The translations under genes and the position numbers were made by a program. Source: a virus. Taken from it: a stretch of DNA of 26,903 bases. The notes beneath the pieces are model-generated. The model did not search any database and was not told the origin of the DNA. It saw only the letters and a program-made list of their open reading frames with translations. The DNA is taken from positions 1-26,903 of the IMG/VR virus record IMGVR_UViG_3300046543_000249; one strand, 5' to 3'. This document shows positions 916-16,876 of this stretch, piece by piece (the first letter of the stretch is position 1; each line of letters opens with the position of its first letter).

Positions 916-2367
916 ATGAGCACTGACTTTCTGCACGGCTTGGAAGTCCTGGAAATCAACGACGGTTCCCGGACAATCAGCATTGCTTCCAGTTCCGTTA
1001 TCGGCATCATTGGCACCGCGCCGAATGCCGACCCGGCTGCATTCCCGCTGAATACGCCCGTGCTGGTCGCTGGCTCGCGCGTGGATGCGGCGAAACTGGT
1101 CGCGCTTACCACTTCGGTGGATAACGGCACGCTGCCCGATGCAATCGACAGCATTTTCGATCAATCGAAAGCTGTCCTGATCGTTGTTCGTGTTGCGGCC
1201 GACGTGGACGCGGCGGTGCAGCGCGCCAACATCATCGGCGGCACCGACGCGAGCGGAAATTACCTTGGCGTCCAGGCATTCGTGGGCGCCGAACACGTGA
1301 CCGGCTACAAGCCGCGCATTCTGATTGCGCCCGGCTTCACGCACACACGCACGGCCAATGGCGTTTCCACGCTCGCGATTGACGATGCTGGCGCAGGCTA
1401 CACGGACGGCACTTATACGCTGGTCGCATCGGGTGGCGGCGGCGGAACGGGCGCGGTGGCCACGGCCACGGTTTCGGGCGGCAAGGTTACGGCCGTTGCG
1501 CTGTCGAAATACGGTTCCGGCTATACGGCCCTGCCGACGTTCGCACTTCCCGCTGGCGCTGGCGCGGGCACCGAGACCGCGACTTTTACGGCGACAACGG
1601 GCACCGTGGCCAATGCCGTGGTTGCGGAATTTACTGGCATTGCGAATTCGCTGCGCGCGGTGATCATTCCCGACGCGCCCAGCACGACCGACGCGGACGC
1701 CATCGCATACGCGGGCGACTTCGACAGCCGACGCATTTACCTGGTTGAATCCCAGGTGACGAAGACAGACAGCAGCGGCAACAACGTTACAGCATTCACC
1801 AGTGCGCACGCTGCTGGCTTGCTGGCGAAGTCGGACAACGAACGCGGTTTCTGGTGGTCGCCATCGAACCAGGCTATCAACGGCGTTACAGGCACCGCTC
1901 GCGTGATTGATTTCGTGATGGGTGATACCACATGCCGCGCCAATCTGCTGAACGCGAAAAACGTCAACGTGGTGATTCGCCAGAATGGCTTTCGCCTGTG
2001 GGGCAATCGCACGCTGTCGAGCGATCAGAAATGGGCGTTCCTGTGCGTCGTTCGCACGTCGGACATTATCGCGGACAGCCTGATGGCGGCGCACCTGTGG
2101 GCGGTGGACCAGGGTATTACAAAAAACTACGTCAACGACGTGGTGGAAGGCGTGAATTCGTTCCTGCGCCACCTGACGGCTATCGGCGCGATCCTGGGCG
2201 GCACCTGCTGGGCAGACCCGGACCTAAACACGCCGGACCAGATCGCGAAGGGTGATATCGCTTTCGATTTCGATTTCACGCCCGTCTACCCGAGCGAGCG
2301 CGTAACGTTCCGCGAACACCTGGTGAATGACTATATCGCCAGCATCTTTTCTTCGAGCGCGAGCTAA
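916..2367 (+). CDS. FI: Contractile tail sheath protein (P2 FI-like) with inserted beta domain
   Basis: A 483-residue protein starting at ATG 916 with an AAGAGG ribosome site. The N-terminal part (VLEINDGSRTISIASSSVIGIIGTAP) is the classic sheath start. The C-terminal half (about 235-483) contains the typical sheath core, including RRIYLVESQV, the WWSPSNQAINGVTG stretch and a terminal domain ending in VYPSERVTFREHLVNDYI. Sheath subunits assemble around the tube and contract at infection. Residues about 146-230 look like an insertion: a glycine-rich repeat unit with two GxGYT motifs (GAGYTDG and GSGYTAL) between APGFTHT and VANAVVAEF. It lies upstream of the tube gene, as in P2. P2 FI is shorter (near 396 residues), consistent with an extra domain here. 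Confidence 0.95.
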   Translation: MSTDFLHGLEVLEINDGSRTISIASSSVIGIIGTAPNADPAAFPLNTPVLVAGSRVDAAKLVALTTSVDNGTLPDAIDSIFDQSKAVLIVVRVAADVDAAVQRANIIGGTDASGNYLGVQAFVGAEHVTGYKPRILIAPGFTHTRTANGVSTLAIDDAGAGYTDGTYTLVASGGGGGTGAVATATVSGGKVTAVALSKYGSGYTALPTFALPAGAGAGTETATFTATTGTVANAVVAEFTGIANSLRAVIIPDAPSTTDADAIAYAGDFDSRRIYLVESQVTKTDSSGNNVTAFTSAHAAGLLAKSDNERGFWWSPSNQAINGVTGTARVIDFVMGDTTCRANLLNAKNVNVVIRQNGFRLWGNRTLSSDQKWAFLCVVRTSDIIADSLMAAHLWAVDQGITKNYVNDVVEGVNSFLRHLTAIGAILGGTCWADPDLNTPDQIAKGDIAFDFDFTPVYPSERVTFREHLVNDYIASIFSSSAS

Positions 2368-7677: not shown

Positions 7678-7710
7678 TCCAGATGGACGAAACACCGCCA
7701 GCCATGGCCC

Positions 7711-7732
7711 GGCGCATCGCGCAGGATGCGCC
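7711..7732 (+). terminator. Strong hairpin after gpD, possible late-operon terminator
   Basis: A perfect 8-bp inverted repeat GGCGCATC-GCGCAG-GATGCGCC, 34 bases after the D stop. It is followed by GTATTTATCC, not a clean T run, so intrinsic termination may be weak. Position between the converging tail operon and leftward early operon supports a terminator role. Confidence 0.45.
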
Positions 7733-7775
7733 GTATTTATCCAGATAAACGCAGACCGCCCGCCTGCGCTTCGTT

Positions 7776-8015
7776 TCAGTCTTCCGCGCCTTCCACGTCC
7801 ATTGCACCATGCAGCGGGCAGTGCGGGCGGCCGACTTCCAGCCACTTTTTGGTGATTCGCACCGTGTAGCCGCATTCCGCGCAGCACGCCTTCAGAAGCC
7901 TGGCTGATTGCTTTTTCGGGCCGGTGGAAATTTCGCCTTCGCCTTCGCCATCCAGGGCAGAACCTTCGCCCGCAAAAAAGCCCGTGGGTGGCGCCCACGG
8001 GCTTATGTCTTTCAG
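7776..8015 (-). pseudogene. Remnant of a SprT-like C-terminal zinc-ribbon gene
   Basis: Minus-strand frame open from just after a TAA (8016-8018) to TGA 7776-7778, with no ATG, GTG or TTG start. Its last half reads KKQSARLLKACCAECGYTV then RITKKWLEVGRPHCPLHG. This is the pattern (K..RL.KA.C..CGY..R.T.KW...G.P.CP.H) that I associate with the C-terminal zinc ribbon of phage SprT-like proteins. The missing start and the terminator inside its 5' part suggest a truncated leftover of a gene once downstream of ssb. Translation from a rare start cannot be excluded. Confidence 0.45.
7974..8004 (-). terminator. Terminator of the leftward recombination/anti-defence operon
   Basis: Read on the minus strand: an 11-bp stem (AAGCCCGTGGG ... 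CCCACGGGCTT) with a 5-base loop, then a T run continuing from the stem. It lies 36 bases after the ssb stop. On the plus strand the same stem is not followed by T, so it acts mainly leftward. Confidence 0.9.
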
Positions 8016-8039
8016 TTATGATTTTTTGGCGATACTACG

Positions 8040-8498
8040 TCAAAAAGGTATGTCGTCGTCCATTTCATCGAACCCGCCGCCAGCCGGTTGCGCTGCCGGT
8101 TGTGCGGCCGTGGACGGGCGCGGTTGTCGTGCTTCGCCACCCTGCGAGCCGTCGCCATTGCGCGGGCTGCCGAGTAGGCCGAGTTCCGAAACCTGAATTT
8201 CTGTGCTGTAACGGTCTGTGCCGTCCTGCGCCTGATACTTTCGCGTCTTGATTTTGCCGACGACGAAAATATGGCTGCCTTTCTTTACATACTCATTGGC
8301 GATTTCCGCGAGTCGCCCGAACACGCTGATGCGGTGCCATTCGGTCGCTTCCTTCATTTCGCCGCTTGCCTTGTCTTTCCATTTTTCCGTGGTAGCCAGG
8401 CGGATATTAGCCACGGCATCACCGCTGGGCAGATACCGCACTTCCGGGTCTGCGCCAACGTTGCCGATAAGTTCAACCTGGTTTCTGTGAAATGCCAT
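8040..8498 (-). CDS. ssb: Single-stranded DNA-binding protein
   Basis: A 152-residue OB-fold protein beginning [20 protein letters not shown], with [14 protein letters not shown] and [22 protein letters not shown] typical of bacterial-type SSB. The tail is glycine/proline-rich and ends in the acidic tip DEMDDDIPF, the known docking site for partner proteins. It binds ssDNA during replication and recombination. In this operon it would work with the exonuclease and the RecA-like ATPase, since Sak4-type annealing is stimulated by SSB. The start codon is preceded directly by the GAAAGTCGCTTTC palindrome, which takes up the place of a normal ribosome site (GGAAAG on the minus strand, about 10 bases upstream). 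Confidence 0.97.
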
Positions 8499-8539: not shown

Positions 8540-8818
8540 TTACGCGAACGTGGACGGCTGCGCCACGGCGCGAGTAAGCATCATGAAGCCCAGGCGAAGG
8601 CTGCGCGCGCCTTCTTCTTCCCAGCCCATTGCTTCGACGGCGACAGCCTGCAATTCTTCGTCACCTTTTGCCTGGTTGAACTGCCTTGCCGTGCGCTGCT
8701 GCACTTCCTCAACCAGTTTTTTTGTTTCCTCACCGTGCGCCTTGATGCGGTTCATCAAGTCGATAGTCGGCTGGTCCAGGTCGCGATAGCCTGCGATGTT
8801 TTTGTGCTGGTCTTTCAT
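8540..8818 (-). CDS. acb2: Acb2-type anti-CBASS cyclic-oligonucleotide sponge
   Basis: A 92-residue helical protein with an AAAGGA ribosome site. The N-terminus has the family signature H5..I8.GYRDL, then [13 protein letters not shown], and the C-terminus has [18 protein letters not shown]. These are the two conserved blocks of the Acb2/T4 Vs.4 family (also called the Acb2/Tad1 hairpin family). Tyr11 and Lys26, which I recall as ligand-binding residues in the characterised Acb2, are present at the same positions. Acb2 hexamers bind cyclic di- and trinucleotides made by host CBASS and so block defence signalling. Length fits the family. It sits between ssb and a zinc-finger gene in the early operon, so it would be made soon after infection. 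The middle (about 34-60) is charged and variable. Confidence 0.88.
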
Positions 8819-8880: not shown

Positions 8881-9102
8881 TCAGCGATACTTTTCGAATT
8901 CTCTAGCGCAATCAGGGCCGCAAAACAGCCTCAATTCGTCGCCTTCGAATGGTTCGGCGCACCGTGGGTTTTTGCAGCAGCCTTCAGCCTTCACGCGCGG
9001 CGCTGCATCCGCGCGTGCCCGTTGGACCTGGAGCGATTGCGCCAGGTCCAATTCGATTCTGTGCTGGGCCTGGTCCAGCACGTCAGAGAACATTTCTGCC
9101 AT
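8881..9102 (-). CDS. Small four-cysteine zinc-finger protein
   Basis: A 73-residue protein with an alpha-helical N-terminus (MAEMFSDVLDQAQHRIELDLAQ) resembling the start of TraR/DksA-like phage proteins. A cysteine cluster C-C-x4-C ... FCGPDCAREFEKYR follows at residues about 42-73, likely one zinc site. The C-terminal block also looks like the DUF2116-type zinc ribbon. It starts 2 bases after the upstream stop, so it is translationally coupled. It could affect RNA polymerase as DksA/TraR does, but this is inference from the architecture only. Confidence 0.6.
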   Translation of the reverse strand: MAEMFSDVLDQAQHRIELDLAQSLQVQRARADAAPRVKAEGCCKNPRCAEPFEGDELRLFCGPDCAREFEKYR

Positions 9103-9104
9103 GG

Positions 9105-9602
9105 TTAAGCGGGTGCCCGCTCCATCGCGATGACTGCGCCAGCCAGGTAATTGATAGCGCCCAGCAGTTCGCGCACGCCCGCTTCGCGATTCAGGCGCTG
9201 GGATTCTTCGGATTTCTTGAACGCCTGGGCCAGCAGCGAGCCGACGCCGAAGCGCCGCGCCATGTCCTGCATAACCTGCGCGTCGAACGGCTCGCCGTCC
9301 CGCGCATGGCGTTCGGCGCCCTTGCCGTGGGCTGCCTGCTGGAAAGCGCGGGCCAGCACGCGGGCCAGGCTTTGATAACCCGGCGCATCGAGCAGCACGC
9401 CGGATTCAGCGCCCGGCGCCTGCGCGGGGATCATTTCGAGCGCGCCGACCGCGAAGTAATCGACGGCGCCCGAAACTTTGCTATCAAGCTGAATGGCAAT
9501 CAGCCCGTCCTGGCAAAGCCGCTTCACGGTGCCATCGCTGCCCGCCATCGGCACGTGTACGCGGCTTCCAACGGATATGAAAAGGGTATTGGTGGCTGTC
9601 AT
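9105..9602 (-). CDS. Unknown phage early protein, 165 residues
   Basis: Not recognised. The N-terminal part (about 1-60) looks like a small beta barrel (VGSRVHVPMAGSDGTVKRL ... AIQLDSKVSG ... VGALEMIP). The second half (70-165) is helical, with SLARVLARAFQQAA and LLGAINYLAGAVIAME segments. The start overlaps the stop of the ATPase gene (ATGA), so it is coupled to the recombination genes. The SH3-like beginning suggests protein or nucleic-acid contact, but no function is claimed. Confidence 0.6.
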   Translation of the reverse strand: MTATNTLFISVGSRVHVPMAGSDGTVKRLCQDGLIAIQLDSKVSGAVDYFAVGALEMIPAQAPGAESGVLLDAPGYQSLARVLARAFQQAAHGKGAERHARDGEPFDAQVMQDMARRFGVGSLLAQAFKKSEESQRLNREAGVRELLGAINYLAGAVIAMERAPA

Positions 9603-10579
9603 GCTGTCGCCCCGTCCAGCGCCGCATTTACGCCCGCGAGTTCGGTGCCGCCCGCCTGCGCTTCGGTGCGCTGCTTGTCGAATGCTGCGGCCTGGTCTTT
9701 CAGATCGGAAGGGCAGGTGGCATCTTTGCTGATGCGCTTACGCATCGCGGCGGGCAGCGCCTTCCACGCGGCCACCAGTTCCGCCGTGCCCTTTTCCGCG
9801 ACAAGGCGCAGCGAGTCGATAGCGCGCTGCTTTTCTTCGTCCACCTGGCTGCCGCCGTCCACCCATTCGCGGATGCCCAGGCCGTGTTCATAGCCCAGGA
9901 ACCCTTCGTGCCAGCCGACCGCGCCCACGATTTCTTCCAGGTCCGGGTGGCTTTTCAGCACTTCGCGCTGCTTGCCGCCGTCGTACATCATGATTGACAC
10001 GGTAAGTTCGAATGGGAAGTTCTTTTCGCAAATCGGCTGGATGCCCTGCGGTTCGTATTCCGTCTTACCGTTGACCCTCACCATCTTCGTTTTCTCGCGC
10101 GCCCGCATGCATGCGATAACGTGCATGGGCGACGACAGCAGCGCATTAACAAAGCGCTTGTGTTCCGCCTTCGCGTCGTTCCACTTTGCAATTTTCAGCG
10201 ACGAGCCGGGGGGGTTCGCGATTTCTTCGCAGCCGCCCGTGCCTTCCCATTCGTGGGATGTGCTGTCGATAATCAGCACTTCGAAACCCGCCTTCGCGGC
10301 GCCTTCGATAACGTCGATATAGCGCTGCGGACTGAACGGGGCGTACAGGTCGTGAATCATGAATTTCTTCACGTTGCCGTCCGCATCCTGCAACACGCGG
10401 GCGAACAGACGGCCGCGCCGGTTTTCCGTGCAGACAAAGCCGATTTTCGACGTGTCGCCCTTCACCATGCCGTGGGCGATTTCCAGCGCAGTGCGGGTTT
10501 TACCGCCGCCGCTGATGCCAGCCAGGCCAATAACGAGCCGGGCGCCTTCGCGTTCCGCAGTTTCAAATTTGATAGTCAC
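9599..10579 (-). CDS. RecA-like/AAA_24 P-loop ATPase, probable recombination protein (Sak4-like)
   Basis: A 326-residue protein. I chose GTG 10579 because a good ribosome site (AAAGGA) precedes it and it starts 14 bases after the exonuclease stop; longer versions would overlap that gene. Walker A is GISGGGKT at 21-28 and Walker B-like VLIIDST lies near 100-105. The core (about 12-210) resembles phage AAA_24 ATPases, which include Sak4-type single-strand annealing proteins related to the RecA core. The C-terminal part (about 230-326) is helical and variable. Neighbouring exonuclease and SSB complete a recombination module. An alternative is a DNA-repair or packaging-type ATPase, but the context favours recombination. 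Confidence 0.75.
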   Translation of the reverse strand: MTIKFETAEREGARLVIGLAGISGGGKTRTALEIAHGMVKGDTSKIGFVCTENRRGRLFARVLQDADGNVKKFMIHDLYAPFSPQRYIDVIEGAAKAGFEVLIIDSTSHEWEGTGGCEEIANPPGSSLKIAKWNDAKAEHKRFVNALLSSPMHVIACMRAREKTKMVRVNGKTEYEPQGIQPICEKNFPFELTVSIMMYDGGKQREVLKSHPDLEEIVGAVGWHEGFLGYEHGLGIREWVDGGSQVDEEKQRAIDSLRLVAEKGTAELVAAWKALPAAMRKRISKDATCPSDLKDQAAAFDKQRTEAQAGGTELAGVNAALDGATA

Positions 10580-10593
10580 TTTCTTTTTATCCT

Positions 10594-11718
10594 TTAGGCC
10601 GCCAGGCGCTGCACGCCCTGGCTGACATACCAAGCTGGCAGCGCCAGGCTTTCCACTTTCTCGCTATAGGCCGGAAACTTCCCGGATTGCAGGCATTCCG
10701 CGTACCGGTTCAGGTTTGCCCGGTACTGCATCCGGCCTAGCTCCACGTCTTCAGCCCGCAACACATACACGCCGACCGCGTGCGGCGCCTTCTTTTCCAC
10801 CGCGATAAACACGAAGGCGCGCGGCTTGCGCTTCACTGCTGCCAAGCCATCCCTATAAAACGGGTCCTGGACGTGATACCGATAGTTCGCGCACGACTTC
10901 GCGAATTCTTCTGGGCTGGCGTCTTCCGTCGTCTTCAGGTCCACCACGAAATCGTCATGCGTCAAATAGTCCGGGCGGCATCGGCACAGCACGCCAGTAA
11001 CCTTGTCCACCCAATAAACCGATTGCTCAGGATTCCCAGGTTTTTGCAGCAAGGCTGCCGCCTTCGGATGCGCCATGACGGCTTCGCGCATCCTGTGCAG
11101 CACGTCCCATTCCTCTGCTTGCAGGACCGAGCGGTGGCCGTTGTTACGCTCCCACTCTGCCTTCAGATCGCGCCACAGAGTAACCGGCTTTTCATTCGAC
11201 CGCAGCAGCGCCGCGAGTTGTTCCGTCGTGCCTGAAACAGACAGCAGCCCTTCGCGCGATTCGTTCAGCGTGCCGATAAGCTGCTTCAGTTCAGCGCCAC
11301 TCATTGCTTCGCAGGATTCGCGCGTCCACACCATCGCGTCCACGTCCGTTTGCGCCGTAATGATGCGTTCAATCTGCTCCGCCTTCGACCCGGTAACTGG
11401 CAATTTCGGCAGCCGCTTGGCGTTCAGGCTTTCGACCATCGACACCAGCACTTCCTTATCGTCAATCGCGTCCGGGTAATCACTGCGCCGCATGCCCAGC
11501 GTGTATTCCGTTGCAAACACCTTCGGTTCCAGCACCAGCGCATGAAACGCGGTCCCGATGGCCTGCGCCGCCGTTGGCACCCTTTCTTCGTGAGGCGCAT
11601 CACGTGCCGCCTTCAGATGCGCCGGGCTTCGGTTAATCAGGTCCAGTAGCGACTTTGAGACCCCTGGGCCGCCGTGGTAATCCGCGTTCGAAATGTCCGG
11701 GTAAATGCCTGGCTTCAT
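10594..11718 (-). CDS. RecE/ExoVIII-like PD-(D/E)XK exonuclease
   Basis: A 374-residue protein. The start MKPGIYPDISNADYHGG at 11718 is the conserved beginning of the putative exodeoxyribonuclease 8 family; the longer open frame to 11835 adds unrelated residues. GVSKSLLDLINRSPAHLK follows as in family members. The nuclease core has DFVVDLKTTEDAS near residues 250-265 and a QxxxY motif (YRYHVQDPFYRDGL) after it. These enzymes resect double-stranded ends 5'-3' to give the ssDNA used by an annealing protein. Compared with E. coli RecE (866 residues) it covers only the nuclease half, as usual in phages. Residues about 105-180 (asparagine/glutamate-rich helices) look like an insertion common in this group. 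Confidence 0.88.
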   Translation of the reverse strand: MKPGIYPDISNADYHGGPGVSKSLLDLINRSPAHLKAARDAPHEERVPTAAQAIGTAFHALVLEPKVFATEYTLGMRRSDYPDAIDDKEVLVSMVESLNAKRLPKLPVTGSKAEQIERIITAQTDVDAMVWTRESCEAMSGAELKQLIGTLNESREGLLSVSGTTEQLAALLRSNEKPVTLWRDLKAEWERNNGHRSVLQAEEWDVLHRMREAVMAHPKAAALLQKPGNPEQSVYWVDKVTGVLCRCRPDYLTHDDFVVDLKTTEDASPEEFAKSCANYRYHVQDPFYRDGLAAVKRKPRAFVFIAVEKKAPHAVGVYVLRAEDVELGRMQYRANLNRYAECLQSGKFPAYSEKVESLALPAWYVSQGVQRLAA

Positions 11719-11737
11719 GCCTGTAAATCCTGTGTTG

Positions 11738-11788
11738 CTTATCGAACGTACACAACATTTAGAGCGTGTTAGAGCGTTGTTCGATAAG
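11738..11788 (-). promoter_or_regulatory. 10-bp inverted repeat in the leader of the exonuclease operon
   Basis: CTTATCGAAC (11738-11747) and GTTCGATAAG (11779-11788) are exact inverse copies 31 bases apart. Between them lie two tandem TTAGAGCGT-type units (near 11758-11778). On the minus-strand transcript these arms could form a long hairpin from the first leader bases to 20 bases before the start codon. Alternatively they are two binding sites for a repressor at +1 and in the leader. Confidence 0.5.
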
Positions 11789-11791
11789 GAG

Positions 11792-11820
11792 ATTTTGGGT
11801 TTTCGGTTTCCAAAAGTCAA
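11792..11820 (-). promoter_or_regulatory. Predicted leftward early promoter
   Basis: On the minus strand TTGACT (11820-11815), a 17-base spacer, then CAAAAT (11797-11792). It points into the exonuclease/ATPase/Acb2/ssb operon. A partly matching copy of the GTTTnC-n4-GGAAAC dyad overlaps its -35 box (11806-11821), weaker than those of the rightward cassettes. Confidence 0.55.
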
Positions 11821-11877
11821 CGTGCAAGGAAACAATTTTTAACGTGTCGTTTACCAGCCACAGCAAAGTTTACTGAT

Positions 11878-11894: not shown

Positions 11895-11916
11895 TCTTAG
11901 CGCAAATCGGTAATAT
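11887..11916 (+). promoter_or_regulatory. Predicted rightward early promoter of the helicase operon
   Basis: TTTGCC (11887-11892), an 18-base spacer and TAATAT (11911-11916) give a weak sigma-70-type promoter. B operators overlap both boxes, so a repressor bound here would block it. The expected transcript start is about 20-25 bases before the helicase ATG. Confidence 0.45.
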
Positions 11917-11923
11917 TGACCGA
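11907..11923. promoter_or_regulatory. Operator B2 (TCGGTAATATTGACCGA)
   Basis: A 17-bp palindrome with perfect TCGGT/ACCGA arms, 29 bases (about three helical turns) from B1, so two dimers could bind the same DNA face. It covers the predicted -10 box of the helicase promoter. Confidence 0.7.
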
Positions 11924-11945
11924 AACGTGGCGTGGAAGCGACAGA

Positions 11946-13391
11946 ATGGCGGTTGTGCTTAGGGGGTATCAGGAGGAACTGATTGCGAAGGCGCGCGACG
12001 CCCTGCGCAGGCATAAACGCATCCTGATTCAATCCGCCACGGGTTCCGGGAAAACCGCGCTGGCCACGCATATGGCGATCCAGTCCGTATCGCGCGGGAA
12101 GAAAGTTAATTTCATCTGCCACCGCGCCGAACTGGTGGAAGGCACCAGCAAGACGTTCCACAAATTCAACCTGCCGCACGGATTCATCGCGGCGGGGCGA
12201 CCCATGACCGTCCGCACCATGGCGAACGTGTGCAGCATCGACACGCTAAAGGCGCGGCTGGAACAGGTGGAAGCGCCCGACGTGGCCATATGGGACGAAT
12301 GCCACCACATGGGCGCAGCGGGCTGGCAACTCGTCATGAAGTCATGGCCGAACACGTATCACATTGGGCTGTCGGCGACGCCGTGGCGGCTGGACGGGAC
12401 CGGGCTAGGTGATTTCTTCGATGAAATGGTTACTGGCCCGTCCGTTTCCTGGCTGATCGAGGAAGGCCACCTGTCCGAATACCGGGTGTACGCGCCGCAC
12501 GTGCCCGATATGACCGGCGCCCGTAAGTCCATGGGCGACTACACCAAGGCCGACGCCGCCGAGCGGATGGACAAGCCCAAGTTGACGGGCGACGCCATCG
12601 GGCACTGGCAAAGGCTGGCCAGCGGCCTGCGAACGGTGGTCTTCGCCACGACCATTGCGCACAGCCAGCACGTTGCCGAACAGTTCAACGCGGCAGGCGT
12701 ACCGGCTGCGCACCTGGACGGTGGCACGCCAAAGGGCGAGCGAACCCGAATCATCCAGGAATACGCTGCCGGGCGCATCCTGGTGCTGTGCAATGTTGAC
12801 CTGTTCGGGGAAGGCTTCGACCTGGCCAGCATCGCGCAATGTGATGTGACGATTGATTGCGTAATGATGCTGCGGCCGACGCACAGCCTAAGCCTGTTCC
12901 TGCAAATGGTCGGGCGCGCGCTGCGGCCGTACCTTGGAAAAATCGCAATCATTCTGGACCACGCGGGTAACACCCTGCGCCACGGCTTCCCGGACGACGA
13001 ACGCGAATGGACGCTGGAAGGGCGGCAGAAGGGCAAGGGCGGGAAGAAACAGGAAGGGCCGCCGCCACCTATAACGTGCGATAGGTGCTTTCAGCAAATC
13101 CGCCGCCCCTTGCCGCCGAAGTGCCCGACGTGCCAGAAAATCCTGCTGGGCGAAGCAAAGCTGCCAGAGGCGGACGACGGCGAACTGGCAGAAGTGACAG
13201 AGGCAGAGAAGAAACGACGGCGCGCAATTCTTCGCCAGGAGGAATCCGAAGCGCAGGATTTAGGCGCGCTGATCGCGCTGGGAGCCAAGCGCGGTTACAA
13301 AAAACCAGCAGCTTGGGCGCACAAAAAATTCCAGAACAGCCCGTGGAGAAAGCGACTTTCAGAAAAACAACACGAAGCGGTGGGGATATGA
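11946..13391 (+). CDS. SF2 DEAD/DEAH-type helicase with C-terminal zinc finger
   Basis: A 481-residue protein. ATG 11946 is preferred over the TTG at 11916 because it has a GGAAG ribosome site, LRGYQEELIAKARDAL follows at once as the family start, and the TTG lies inside operator B2. Motifs: Walker A ATGSGKT (31-37), WDECHHMG (DECH 117-120), SATPWRLDGTG (143-153), motif VI QMVGRALRPYLGK (about 318-330). CDRC ... CPTC at about 378-398 forms a zinc finger. The protein probably remodels branched DNA or R-loops during phage replication and recombination, like T4 UvsW-class enzymes. It is the first gene of the rightward early operon. A copy of the GAAAGCGACTTTC palindrome lies inside its last codons. 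Confidence 0.92.
   Translation: MAVVLRGYQEELIAKARDALRRHKRILIQSATGSGKTALATHMAIQSVSRGKKVNFICHRAELVEGTSKTFHKFNLPHGFIAAGRPMTVRTMANVCSIDTLKARLEQVEAPDVAIWDECHHMGAAGWQLVMKSWPNTYHIGLSATPWRLDGTGLGDFFDEMVTGPSVSWLIEEGHLSEYRVYAPHVPDMTGARKSMGDYTKADAAERMDKPKLTGDAIGHWQRLASGLRTVVFATTIAHSQHVAEQFNAAGVPAAHLDGGTPKGERTRIIQEYAAGRILVLCNVDLFGEGFDLASIAQCDVTIDCVMMLRPTHSLSLFLQMVGRALRPYLGKIAIILDHAGNTLRHGFPDDEREWTLEGRQKGKGGKKQEGPPPPITCDRCFQQIRRPLPPKCPTCQKILLGEAKLPEADDGELAEVTEAEKKRRRAILRQEESEAQDLGALIALGAKRGYKKPAAWAHKKFQNSPWRKRLSEKQHEAVGI
13348..13360. promoter_or_regulatory. GAAAG-CGA-CTTTC palindrome (family C, copy 4, inside a coding region)
   Basis: An exact copy of the palindrome within the last codons of the helicase gene, 40 bases before the 13400 promoter. 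As in other copies it is near a junction between transcription units, though coding constraint (RKRLS) cannot be excluded as its cause. Confidence 0.4.
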
Positions 13392-14011: not shown

Positions 14012-14995
14012 ATGGCAGAGAAACACAAATCGTATCGAGACCTGATCGCAGAAGGCACCGCATCGCGCGTTAATGCCATGAAGTTCCGAATCCAGGACGT
14101 GCATGAGCAGCCTGGCTTTAACCTGCGCGACGAACAGGCCGTGGACGAAAGCGGCGAAACGTTCGCGGAAGGCATCGAGCGATTCGCGGAATACATCGCG
14201 GCGGGTGGCACCTATCCGCCTATCGAAATCCGCATCCGCGATGATGGCGGGGTGTGGGTTGTGGACGGCCACCGCCGACGCCGCGCCGTGATGCGCGCCA
14301 TGGAAATGGGTGCGCCGCTGGCCGACAAAAACGGCGACGTGTGGATGCAGGTGATTGCGTTCGAAGGCAATGACGTTGACCGCCTTACGCGCATCATGAC
14401 GTCCAATGAGTCGCGCAAGCTGACAGACCTGGAGCGCGCCGCTGGCTACAAGCGCCTGGCTGCCTTCGGTCTTTCGTCGTCCGACATTGCCGCGAAGGTA
14501 AGCCGCAGCCGCCCCCACGTCGAACAAATGCTGATCCTGGCAAACGCCAATCACGACGTACACCAGGCCGTCCGCGAAGGCCGCATTTCTGCCACGGCCG
14601 CCATTGAACTGGTGCGCAAGGAAGGCGAAAACGCGGGCGCCGTGATTAAGGAGAAGTCAACGGCTGCCGGTGGCGGGCGCGTGAAGAAAGGCGACCTGAA
14701 GCCCAAGGCGCTGCCGCCGAAAGTAGTTGCCGAAGTAACCGACGCACTGGCGTGGTTCAAAAAAGAGGGATTGAACCGCGAGCAACGCAAGGCGATTGCC
14801 CTGGCTGAAAAAGACCCGGCGCAGCACGGTAACGCAATGATCGAGATTTCGGCGGGCACGCTGGCCGAACTGACGAAGGCCGCCGCGCTGATCGAGGAAG
14901 CCCGCAAGCAGCAAGACGCGAAGGCCGCAGAGAAGGCGGCGAAGGCCAGCCAGGGCGAACTGCCAGAAGGCGACGACGAGCGGGACGCCGCGTAA
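14012..14995 (+). CDS. ParB/Spo0J-like DNA-binding protein
   Basis: A 327-residue protein with a GGGAG ribosome site. A ParB-type N-terminal domain shows VVDGHRRRRAVMRAM near residues 83-97 (the GHRR motif that binds nucleotide in ParB-family CTPases/nucleases). A helix-turn-helix follows at about 150-175 (SSSDIAAKVSRSRPHVEQML). The C-terminal third is lysine/alanine-rich and ends acidic. Such phage proteins may help partition, act as nucleases or regulate transcription. No ParA-like ATPase is next to it, so plasmid-style partition is not supported. It overlaps the methyltransferase-like gene (TAATG). Confidence 0.85.
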   Translation: MAEKHKSYRDLIAEGTASRVNAMKFRIQDVHEQPGFNLRDEQAVDESGETFAEGIERFAEYIAAGGTYPPIEIRIRDDGGVWVVDGHRRRRAVMRAMEMGAPLADKNGDVWMQVIAFEGNDVDRLTRIMTSNESRKLTDLERAAGYKRLAAFGLSSSDIAAKVSRSRPHVEQMLILANANHDVHQAVREGRISATAAIELVRKEGENAGAVIKEKSTAAGGGRVKKGDLKPKALPPKVVAEVTDALAWFKKEGLNREQRKAIALAEKDPAQHGNAMIEISAGTLAELTKAAALIEEARKQQDAKAAEKAAKASQGELPEGDDERDAA

Positions 14996-16270: not shown

Positions 16271-16497
16271 AAGCGAAACGCGCGTATCGAGCCACGGACT
16301 GGCTATCGCCTGTCGTCGTGATGGAAAGCGGGGACGTGGAACGGGACGCGCAGCGCGTTATGGGGCTGCCGAAGCTGTGGCGGCGACAGCATGAAATCTG
16401 GCGCGTGGGGCACTTGCACGGGCTGGAACACGAAACCGCTGTGAAACGGCGGGTTGCTCAACTTTGGAATGAAAAGGAATTGAAAAATGCAGCATGA
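16267..16497 (+). CDS. Unknown small protein (76 residues)
   Basis: Start ATG 16267 chosen because it overlaps the previous stop (ATGA). Tryptophan- and arginine-rich (ATDWLSPVVVM, LPKLWRRQHEIW, VKRRVAQLWNEKEL). Its helical pattern GLEHETAVKRRVAQLW is typical of small basic phage proteins. Not recognised. It ends 11 bases into the MazG-like gene, so the two are coupled. Confidence 0.6.
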   Translation: MKAKRAYRATDWLSPVVVMESGDVERDAQRVMGLPKLWRRQHEIWRVGHLHGLEHETAVKRRVAQLWNEKELKNAA

Positions 16498-16876
16498 CAA
16501 CCACGCAATTAAAACGGCAGGCGAAATTTTGACTGATCGGTGTTTCGGCGCGTCGTTCGCTTCTGGCTGGTGGACGAACCTGAAAACTGGCGAAGACATG
16601 CGCATGGCCAACAACGTGCCGGAAAAGCTAATGCTGATCGTTTCCGAAGTCGCTGAAGCGATGGAAGGCCACCGTAAAAACCTGATGGATGACAAGCTGA
16701 CGCATCGGCCCATGGTGGAAGTGGAACTGGCCGACGCCGTGATTCGAATTTTCGATCTGGCGGGCGCGAAGGGTTACGACGTGGCGGGCGCGATTGTCGA
16801 AAAAATGGCATTCAACGCACAGCGCGCCGACCACAAACCGGAAAACCGGCTGGCCGAAGGTGGCAAGGCGTACTAA
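16487..16876 (+). CDS. MazG-like nucleotide pyrophosphatase
   Basis: A 129-residue helical protein. The paired metal-binding motifs ExxE (SEVAEAMEGHRK) and ExxD (VELADAVIRIFDL) are visible with the spacing of all-alpha NTP pyrophosphatases, followed by GYDVAGAIVEKMAFNAQR and a C-terminal basic ENRL segment. In phages these enzymes hydrolyse nucleotides (dUTP or (p)ppGpp-related) and may clean the pool or dampen stress signals. It sits in the middle of the early operon. Confidence 0.88.
   Translation: MQHDNHAIKTAGEILTDRCFGASFASGWWTNLKTGEDMRMANNVPEKLMLIVSEVAEAMEGHRKNLMDDKLTHRPMVEVELADAVIRIFDLAGAKGYDVAGAIVEKMAFNAQRADHKPENRLAEGGKAY

What the first reader, a model, noticed from the sequence alone, without database searches (positions are those of the whole stretch)
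8540..8818. Acb2-type anti-CBASS sponge in the early operon
Both conserved blocks of the Acb2/Vs.4 family are present (H..I.GYRDL....I.LMN.IKA.G and [12 protein letters not shown]), with Tyr11 and Lys26 in the positions I recall as ligand-binding. It is flanked by ssb and recombination genes on a probable early transcript, so it would be made before CBASS signals accumulate. The middle segment (34-60) is more charged than in the copies I recall, which may alter the nucleotide range.
Basis: partly seen in the sequence, partly recalled or inferred. Interest (0 to 1): 0.82.

Follow-up and report, generated by a model that had tools for sequence, protein, structure and literature searches.

The report
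Phage Acb2 sponge against bacterial alarm
This phage gene encodes a small Acb2-family protein expected to soak up the cyclic-nucleotide alarm signals that bacteria use against phages; the gene itself is an ordinary new member of a known family, but sister phages have repeatedly lost the signal-binding part at the same spot while keeping the rest of the protein.

Summary
Confirmed. The 92-codon ORF on the minus strand at 8540-8818 encodes an Acb2-family cyclic-nucleotide sponge. It passes Pfam's Acb2/Tad1 hairpin cut-off, matches solved Acb2 (PDB 8h2j, E 1.4e-15, residues 1-91), and its predicted fold finds Acb2 and T4 Vs.4 as the top eight PDB matches. Tyr11 and Lys26 are present. It lies between ssb and recombination genes in an operon shared by 13 related phage contigs, one of them a circular contig in Caballeronia fortuita. 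It is a new member of a known kind.

(1) At the same locus in sister phages the dinucleotide-site block around Tyr11 has been lost at least twice, most simply three times: Y11Q; Y11S with K26T; a six-codon in-frame deletion with K26Q/E. The rest of the protein stays under purifying selection. Elsewhere in the family non-Tyr there is rare (3 of 72 distinct sequences). (2) The whole clade, window included, replaces a family-wide Arg-Trp-x-x-Ile by Gly-Trp-Glu-Glu-Glu, so trinucleotide binding should not be assumed.

The 'unusually charged middle' is within family range. No binding or plating was tested.

The parts
8540..8818 (-). acb2-like gene, 92 aa, cyclic-nucleotide sponge
   Evidence: Pfam PF24729 30.7 bits over cut-off 27; PDB 8h2j E 1.4e-15; AlphaFold2 model pLDDT 84.6, Foldseek top eight matches all Acb2/Vs.4
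8741..8818 (-). N-terminal block, codons 1-26, with Tyr11 (8786-8788), Asn23 and Lys26 (8741-8743): dinucleotide site
   Evidence: translation; family conservation Y11 47/54, N23 49/54, K26 49/54 rows
8612..8626 (-). clade-specific segment G65-W-E-E-E69 replacing the family's R-W-x-x-I
8546..8590 (-). conserved C-terminal block, codons 77-91 ([15 protein letters not shown])
   Evidence: near-invariant in all members, also in those that lost Tyr11
8040..8498 (-). ssb, next gene downstream
   Evidence: PF00436 E 1.9e-35
8881..9102 (-). DksA-like zinc-finger gene, next gene upstream
   Evidence: phrog_54 E 7.6e-4, weak
9105..9602 (-). conserved phage gene of unknown function
   Evidence: phrog_13898 E 7.2e-35
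9599..10633 (-). AAA_24 ATPase, recombination type (exact start uncertain)
   Evidence: PF13479 E 1.1e-8, phrog_1366 E 3.8e-79
10594..11835 (-). exonuclease VIII-like PDDEXK gene, first of the operon (exact start uncertain)
   Evidence: PF12684 E 1.3e-37
11792..11820 (-). promoter-like match in front of the operon (weak)
   Evidence: 9 of 12 consensus bases; 3 such sites found in the region against 1.2 +/- 0.9 in shuffles

Best explanation
The gene encodes an Acb2-type sponge: a helical hairpin protein that, in solved relatives, assembles into a hexamer and traps cyclic dinucleotide alarm molecules between protomers, using Tyr11 and Lys26 and the C-terminal loop of a partner. It is carried in the replication/recombination operon, so it would be made during phage replication and keep the messenger of CBASS (and possibly related systems) from reaching its killer effector. 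Shown here: homology, predicted fold, intact dinucleotide-site residues, operon position. Inferred: hexamer, ligand binding, timing, protection from CBASS. Trinucleotide binding is left open because the clade changed the conserved R-W-x-x-I segment.
For: Pfam Acb2/Tad1 hairpin over cut-off; solved Acb2, E 1.4e-15 over residues 1-91; AlphaFold2 two-helix hairpin, helices 16-49 and 54-86; Foldseek TM 0.72-0.77 to 8h2j, 8h2x and T4 Vs.4 7uq2; Tyr11, Asn23, Lys26 as in most members; strong constraint on residues 21-92 against the nearest relative (dN/dS 0.07); ssb/recombination operon shared by relatives. Literature: Acb2 is a hexameric sponge for di- and trinucleotides (PMC12043709; PMC10419184), and T4 Tyr8 is needed for dinucleotide binding (PMC12657218).
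Against: About 40% identity to a characterised Acb2, so the ligand range cannot be read off. Residues 65-69 differ from nearly all other members. Five of ten distinct proteins at this locus lack Tyr11, so dinucleotide binding is dispensable in this phage group. No SMODS-type CD-NTase was found in the one host genome known for a relative.
Confidence: 0.85

Rival explanations
1. Acb2 with a narrowed range: it keeps the dinucleotide site but has lost or weakened the separate trinucleotide site through the clade-specific Arg-to-Gly and Glu-Glu-Glu change at residues 65-69. (A refinement of the main explanation, not exclusive with it.)
For: Position 65 is Arg in 40 of 43 other members and Gly in all ten clade members; positions 67-69 become three Glu, and the net charge of segment 65-72 goes from about +0.8 to -1.4. 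Negative charges close to a three-fold axis would disfavour an anionic ligand. I recall, but could not verify here, that PaMx33 Arg67 contacts cA3.
Against: The trinucleotide contacts could not be read: the paper describing them is not held and no coordinates are available. The location of residues 65-69 in the hexamer is therefore unknown to me.
Confidence: 0.35
2. The sponge's main job in this phage group is not dinucleotide capture; Tyr11 in the window is a retained ancestral feature, and the selected function rests on the hairpin and C-terminal block (trinucleotide or another signal). Sister phages shed the dinucleotide site, possibly to avoid guard systems such as Panoptes that react when a sponge removes a decoy dinucleotide.
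For: At least two, most simply three, losses of Tyr11 at the same locus, two of them with Lys26 lost as well; all in frame, with the rest constrained (dN/dS 0.07-0.3); lost and intact alleles in the same metagenomes; Panoptes escape through loss of Acb2 dinucleotide binding is known for T4-like phages (PMC12657218, PMC12657230).
Against: The window itself and five of the ten distinct proteins keep Tyr11 and Lys26. mCpol, the Panoptes synthase, passed the cut-off in only 1 of 299 genomes sampled from the host family. The conserved Arg suspected of trinucleotide contact is also gone in the clade. dN/dS covers time before as well as after the losses.
Confidence: 0.25
3. Tyr11-lost relatives are simply decaying sponges, and the window's gene is a functional ancestor-type copy with no more to it.
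For: Loss-of-function acb2 alleles are known in nature (PaMx41 premature stop, T2 binding-site change, as stated in PMC12657218). Counts within the deleted lineage are small.
Against: No frameshift or stop among the clade's alleles; six contigs in the deleted lineage keep a full reading frame; nonsynonymous distance to L005 is the same for the deleted L006 (0.194) and the intact L017 (0.190) in residues 21-92.
Confidence: 0.2
4. Tad1 rather than Acb2.
For: Pfam joins the two in one hairpin family.
Against: Tad1 has an N-terminal beta-sheet domain (PMC12043709); this protein is 92 aa and only helical, and its best matches are all Acb2.
Confidence: 0.02

Closest known systems
Acb2 p26 of Pseudomonas aeruginosa phages (PaMx33 type; PDB 8h2j, 8h2x, 8h39, 8ixz, 8iy0, 8iy1, 8iy2, 8j8o)
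   Same: Full-length alignment, Tyr11 and Lys26 at the same positions, same hairpin fold
   Different: About 40% identity; R67-W-L-A-I there is G65-W-E-E-E here; slightly shorter hairpin tip
T4 Vs.4 (Acb2, PDB 7uq2)
   Same: Same predicted fold, TM 0.72-0.74 by query length; Tyr8 there corresponds to Tyr11
   Different: About 20% identity, not found by sequence search
Tad1 (Thoeris anti-defence 1)
   Same: Shares the hairpin profile in Pfam
   Different: Tad1 carries an additional N-terminal beta-sheet domain (PMC12043709); absent here
Natural Acb2 variants with a changed dinucleotide site (T2, Bas35; PMC12657218, PMC12657230)
   Same: Dinucleotide site altered while the gene remains
   Different: Those are single changes in T4-like phages; here whole-block loss recurs at one locus in another phage group

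Membership tests
Acb2 | Matches the Acb2/Tad1 hairpin profile over its curated cut-off | tested here: met
   30.7 bits against 27, E 3.7e-7
Acb2 | Full-length sequence similarity to an experimentally characterised Acb2 | tested here: met
   PDB 8h2j E 1.4e-15, residues 1-91
Acb2 | Short N-terminal segment plus two long antiparallel helices | tested here: met
   helices 16-49 and 54-86; Foldseek top eight all Acb2/Vs.4; residues 1-9 of low confidence
Acb2 | Dinucleotide-site Tyr and Lys (Tyr11, Lys26) | tested here: met
   not met in L003, L039, L006 and kin
Acb2 | Trinucleotide site at the three-fold axis | not testable with these tools
   contacts not available; the clade lacks the family-wide Arg at position 65
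Acb2 | Homohexamer | not testable with these tools
   only single-chain prediction is offered
Acb2 | Sequesters, without degrading, cyclic oligonucleotides and protects phage from CBASS | not testable with these tools
   needs ITC and plating
Acb2 | Encoded by a tailed phage | tested here: met
   tail sheath, tape measure and gpD-like tail genes in the window
Tad1 | N-terminal beta-sheet domain in front of the hairpin | tested here: not met
   92 aa, all-helical model

The most novel reading that the evidence does not exclude
In this phage group Acb2 is leaving its known ligands: the clade lost the conserved Arg of the R-W-x-x-I segment, and several lineages separately discarded the dinucleotide site, while the hairpin and the C-terminal block stayed under selection. 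The Tyr11-lost proteins would then be either single-site sponges that evade dinucleotide guards such as Panoptes, or sponges for a different signal altogether.
Probability: 0.3. Interest if true: 0.7.

Novelty: new member of a known kind. Interest (0 to 1): 0.45.

Why it matters
By itself the gene extends a known anti-defence family to a phage group one of whose members sits in Caballeronia. The set of natural alleles at one locus (intact; Tyr11 lost; Tyr11 and Lys26 lost; block deleted), with intact and lost alleles found in the same samples, is a ready-made series for asking whether phages keep one half of a sponge to beat CBASS while shedding the half that sets off a guard system, a dilemma proposed for Panoptes (PMC12657218) but so far documented there with T4-like phages.

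Tried and rejected
Wrong-strand Pfam scan, no hit; repeated on the right strand. The papers that hold the ligand contacts (Cao et al. 2024, the 2023 Cell paper on Acb2, the Tad1/Tad2 paper) are not in the library, so trinucleotide contacts were not tested. PADLOC gave only a weak, irrelevant match. The genome-contig scan found a single relative, in Caballeronia fortuita. Considered and rejected: chance ORF (E-values, purifying selection); Tad1 (no beta-sheet domain); pseudogene status of the Tyr11-lost alleles (in frame, constrained, not accelerated); one origin of all Tyr11 losses (p 0.0065), while one origin for L006 and L039 is borderline (p 0.058). An automatic GY[RK]-type filter missed the L059 deletion and wrongly flagged L144, which keeps Tyr; both were corrected by eye.

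Full report
What is there. The window (an IMG/VR virus record of 26,903 bases) carries on the minus strand at 8540-8818 an ATG-started ORF of 92 codons. It matches Pfam PF24729 (Acb2/Tad1 hairpin) with 30.7 bits against a cut-off of 27, PHROG 717 with E 1.4e-17, and the solved Acb2 p26 with E 1.4e-15 over residues 1-91. tblastn finds matches in 211 phage records, mostly Vibrio and Pseudomonas phages, where those listed are mostly annotated as hypothetical proteins. An AlphaFold2 model built from window and locus sequences gives two long antiparallel helices (16-49, 54-86) with mean pLDDT 84.6; residues 1-9 are uncertain. Foldseek against the PDB returns Acb2 and T4 Vs.4 as the first eight matches, TM 0.72-0.77 by query length.

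Context. The gene lies between ssb (8040-8498) and a DksA-like zinc-finger gene (8881-9102), followed upstream by a conserved gene, an AAA_24 ATPase and a DUF3799 exonuclease VIII-like gene, all on the minus strand, divergent from a helicase at 11916-13391. The same order is found in 13 related IMG/VR contigs as far as each extends. Achromobacter phage Mano has the same operon without acb2 between ssb and its gp61, so acb2 is accessory. One relative (80% identical protein) is a 42,413-base contig in the Caballeronia fortuita assembly. Early expression is inferred from gene content; the promoter-like match at 11820-11792 is weak.

How it most likely works. From the literature, Acb2 forms a hexamer that binds three cyclic dinucleotides in pockets made by the N- and C-terminal parts of facing protomers, and trinucleotides at independent sites on the three-fold axis, and so stops CBASS effectors (PMC12043709, PMC10419184). 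T4 Tyr8, equivalent to Tyr11 here, is needed for dinucleotide binding, and Phe82 stacks on the ligand (PMC12657218). The window protein keeps Tyr11, Asn23, Lys26 and the C-terminal block. I therefore take it to be a working dinucleotide sponge. Homology, predicted fold and residues are shown; binding, hexamer, timing and protection are inferred.

Recurrent loss of the dinucleotide site at the same locus. Contigs of the same phage group carry different alleles in the same operon place. L002 is identical to the window; L005 and L017-L019 are intact; L003 and L004 have Y11Q, H5Q and D13A; L039 has Y11S and K26T; L006, L009 and L013-L016 have a six-codon in-frame deletion across Tyr11 with N23A and K26Q or K26E. 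Ten distinct proteins are known and five lack Tyr11. On a tree of codons 27-92, which leaves these positions out, the trait needs three changes; holding all losers together is rejected (p 0.0065), while joining L006 with L039 is borderline (p 0.058): at least two and most simply three losses. In a scan keyed only to the C-terminal block elsewhere in the family, 3 of 72 distinct sequences have a residue other than Tyr there (one Cys, two His, read by eye). An earlier scan gave one more clear case, L059, with a clean in-frame deletion of the K-x-I-x-G-Y-R-D-L stretch.

The losers do not look dead. Every variant is in frame. Between window and L003, residues 2-20 differ at 8 of 19 positions but residues 21-92 at only 4 of 72 (Fisher p 2.6e-4), with dN/dS 0.42 and 0.07. 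In residues 21-92 the deleted lineage L006 is no further from L005 in nonsynonymous distance (0.194) than the intact L017 (0.190). The L006 protein is predicted to keep the Acb2 hairpin, though it falls below Pfam's cut-off (23.1 bits). Lost and intact alleles occur in the same metagenomes (3300047319, 3300047673, 3300046680). Counts are small and contigs are not independent samples, so these are indications rather than proofs.

Clade-specific segment. All ten clade proteins, the window's included, have Gly65 and Glu67-Glu68-Glu69, where 40 of 43 others have Arg at 65 and 40 of 43 have Ile or Leu at 69; segment 65-72 changes net charge from about +0.8 to -1.4. I recall that PaMx33 Arg67, the matching residue, contacts cA3, but could not verify this. 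If so, trinucleotide binding may be weakened in the whole clade, and the Tyr11-lost proteins would have both known sites altered.

Why the site might be shed. Panoptes harms the cell when a sponge removes its 2',3'-c-di-AMP, and loss of Acb2 dinucleotide binding escapes it (PMC12657218, PMC12657230). In 299 genomes of the family of Caballeronia fortuita, SMODS synthases passed the cut-off in 26 and mCpol in 1; the latter sits next to a Cap15-like effector, a Panoptes-like pair. Panoptes is thus present but rare in this sample, so guard evasion is possible but not favoured over altered ligand demand.

Verdict. The allele series and the segment 65-69 change are the parts worth a specialist's time.

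Noticed in passing
L093-L095 (Caballeronia fortuita NZ_FCNX02000029.1, 42,413 bases): The contig's two ends share an exact 77-base overlap, as a circular assembly would; the window has a ParB-like gene (14012-14995) with a similar stretch there, so this phage group may live as a circular phage-plasmid.
   Followed up: partly
IMGVR_UViG_3300047673_000158 (83,411 bases; loci L015, L017): One contig holds two acb2 loci about 43.4 kb apart, one intact and one with the deletion: two related phage genomes in tandem, or an assembly joining.
   Followed up: no
L059 (IMGVR_UViG_3300048908_000112): A distant Acb2 with a clean in-frame deletion of the GYRDL stretch, otherwise close to L073; an independent loss of the dinucleotide-site tyrosine.
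   Followed up: partly
window 7678-8039: Relatives L014 and L005 carry a 213-223 aa gene with an HELTHA/HELIHA motif (SprT-like by eye) between ssb and the gpD-like tail gene that is not intact in the window; Mano has an integrase in that interval.
   Followed up: no
window 7978-8004: Twelve-pair hairpin AAGCCCGTGGGTGGCGCCCACGGGCTT just past the end of ssb, a possible terminator.
   Followed up: no
window 16487-16876: Phage pyrophosphatase-family gene (phrog_5658, E 4.5e-71) with no Pfam match; whether it is a MazG-like counter-defence enzyme was not tested.
   Followed up: no
L035:872-1498 and 1480-1911, minus strand: A Panoptes-like pair (mCpol and Cap15-type receptor) in one genome of the host family.
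   Followed up: partly
L147, L148, L157: Acb2 homologues with His in place of the dinucleotide-site Tyr.
   Followed up: no
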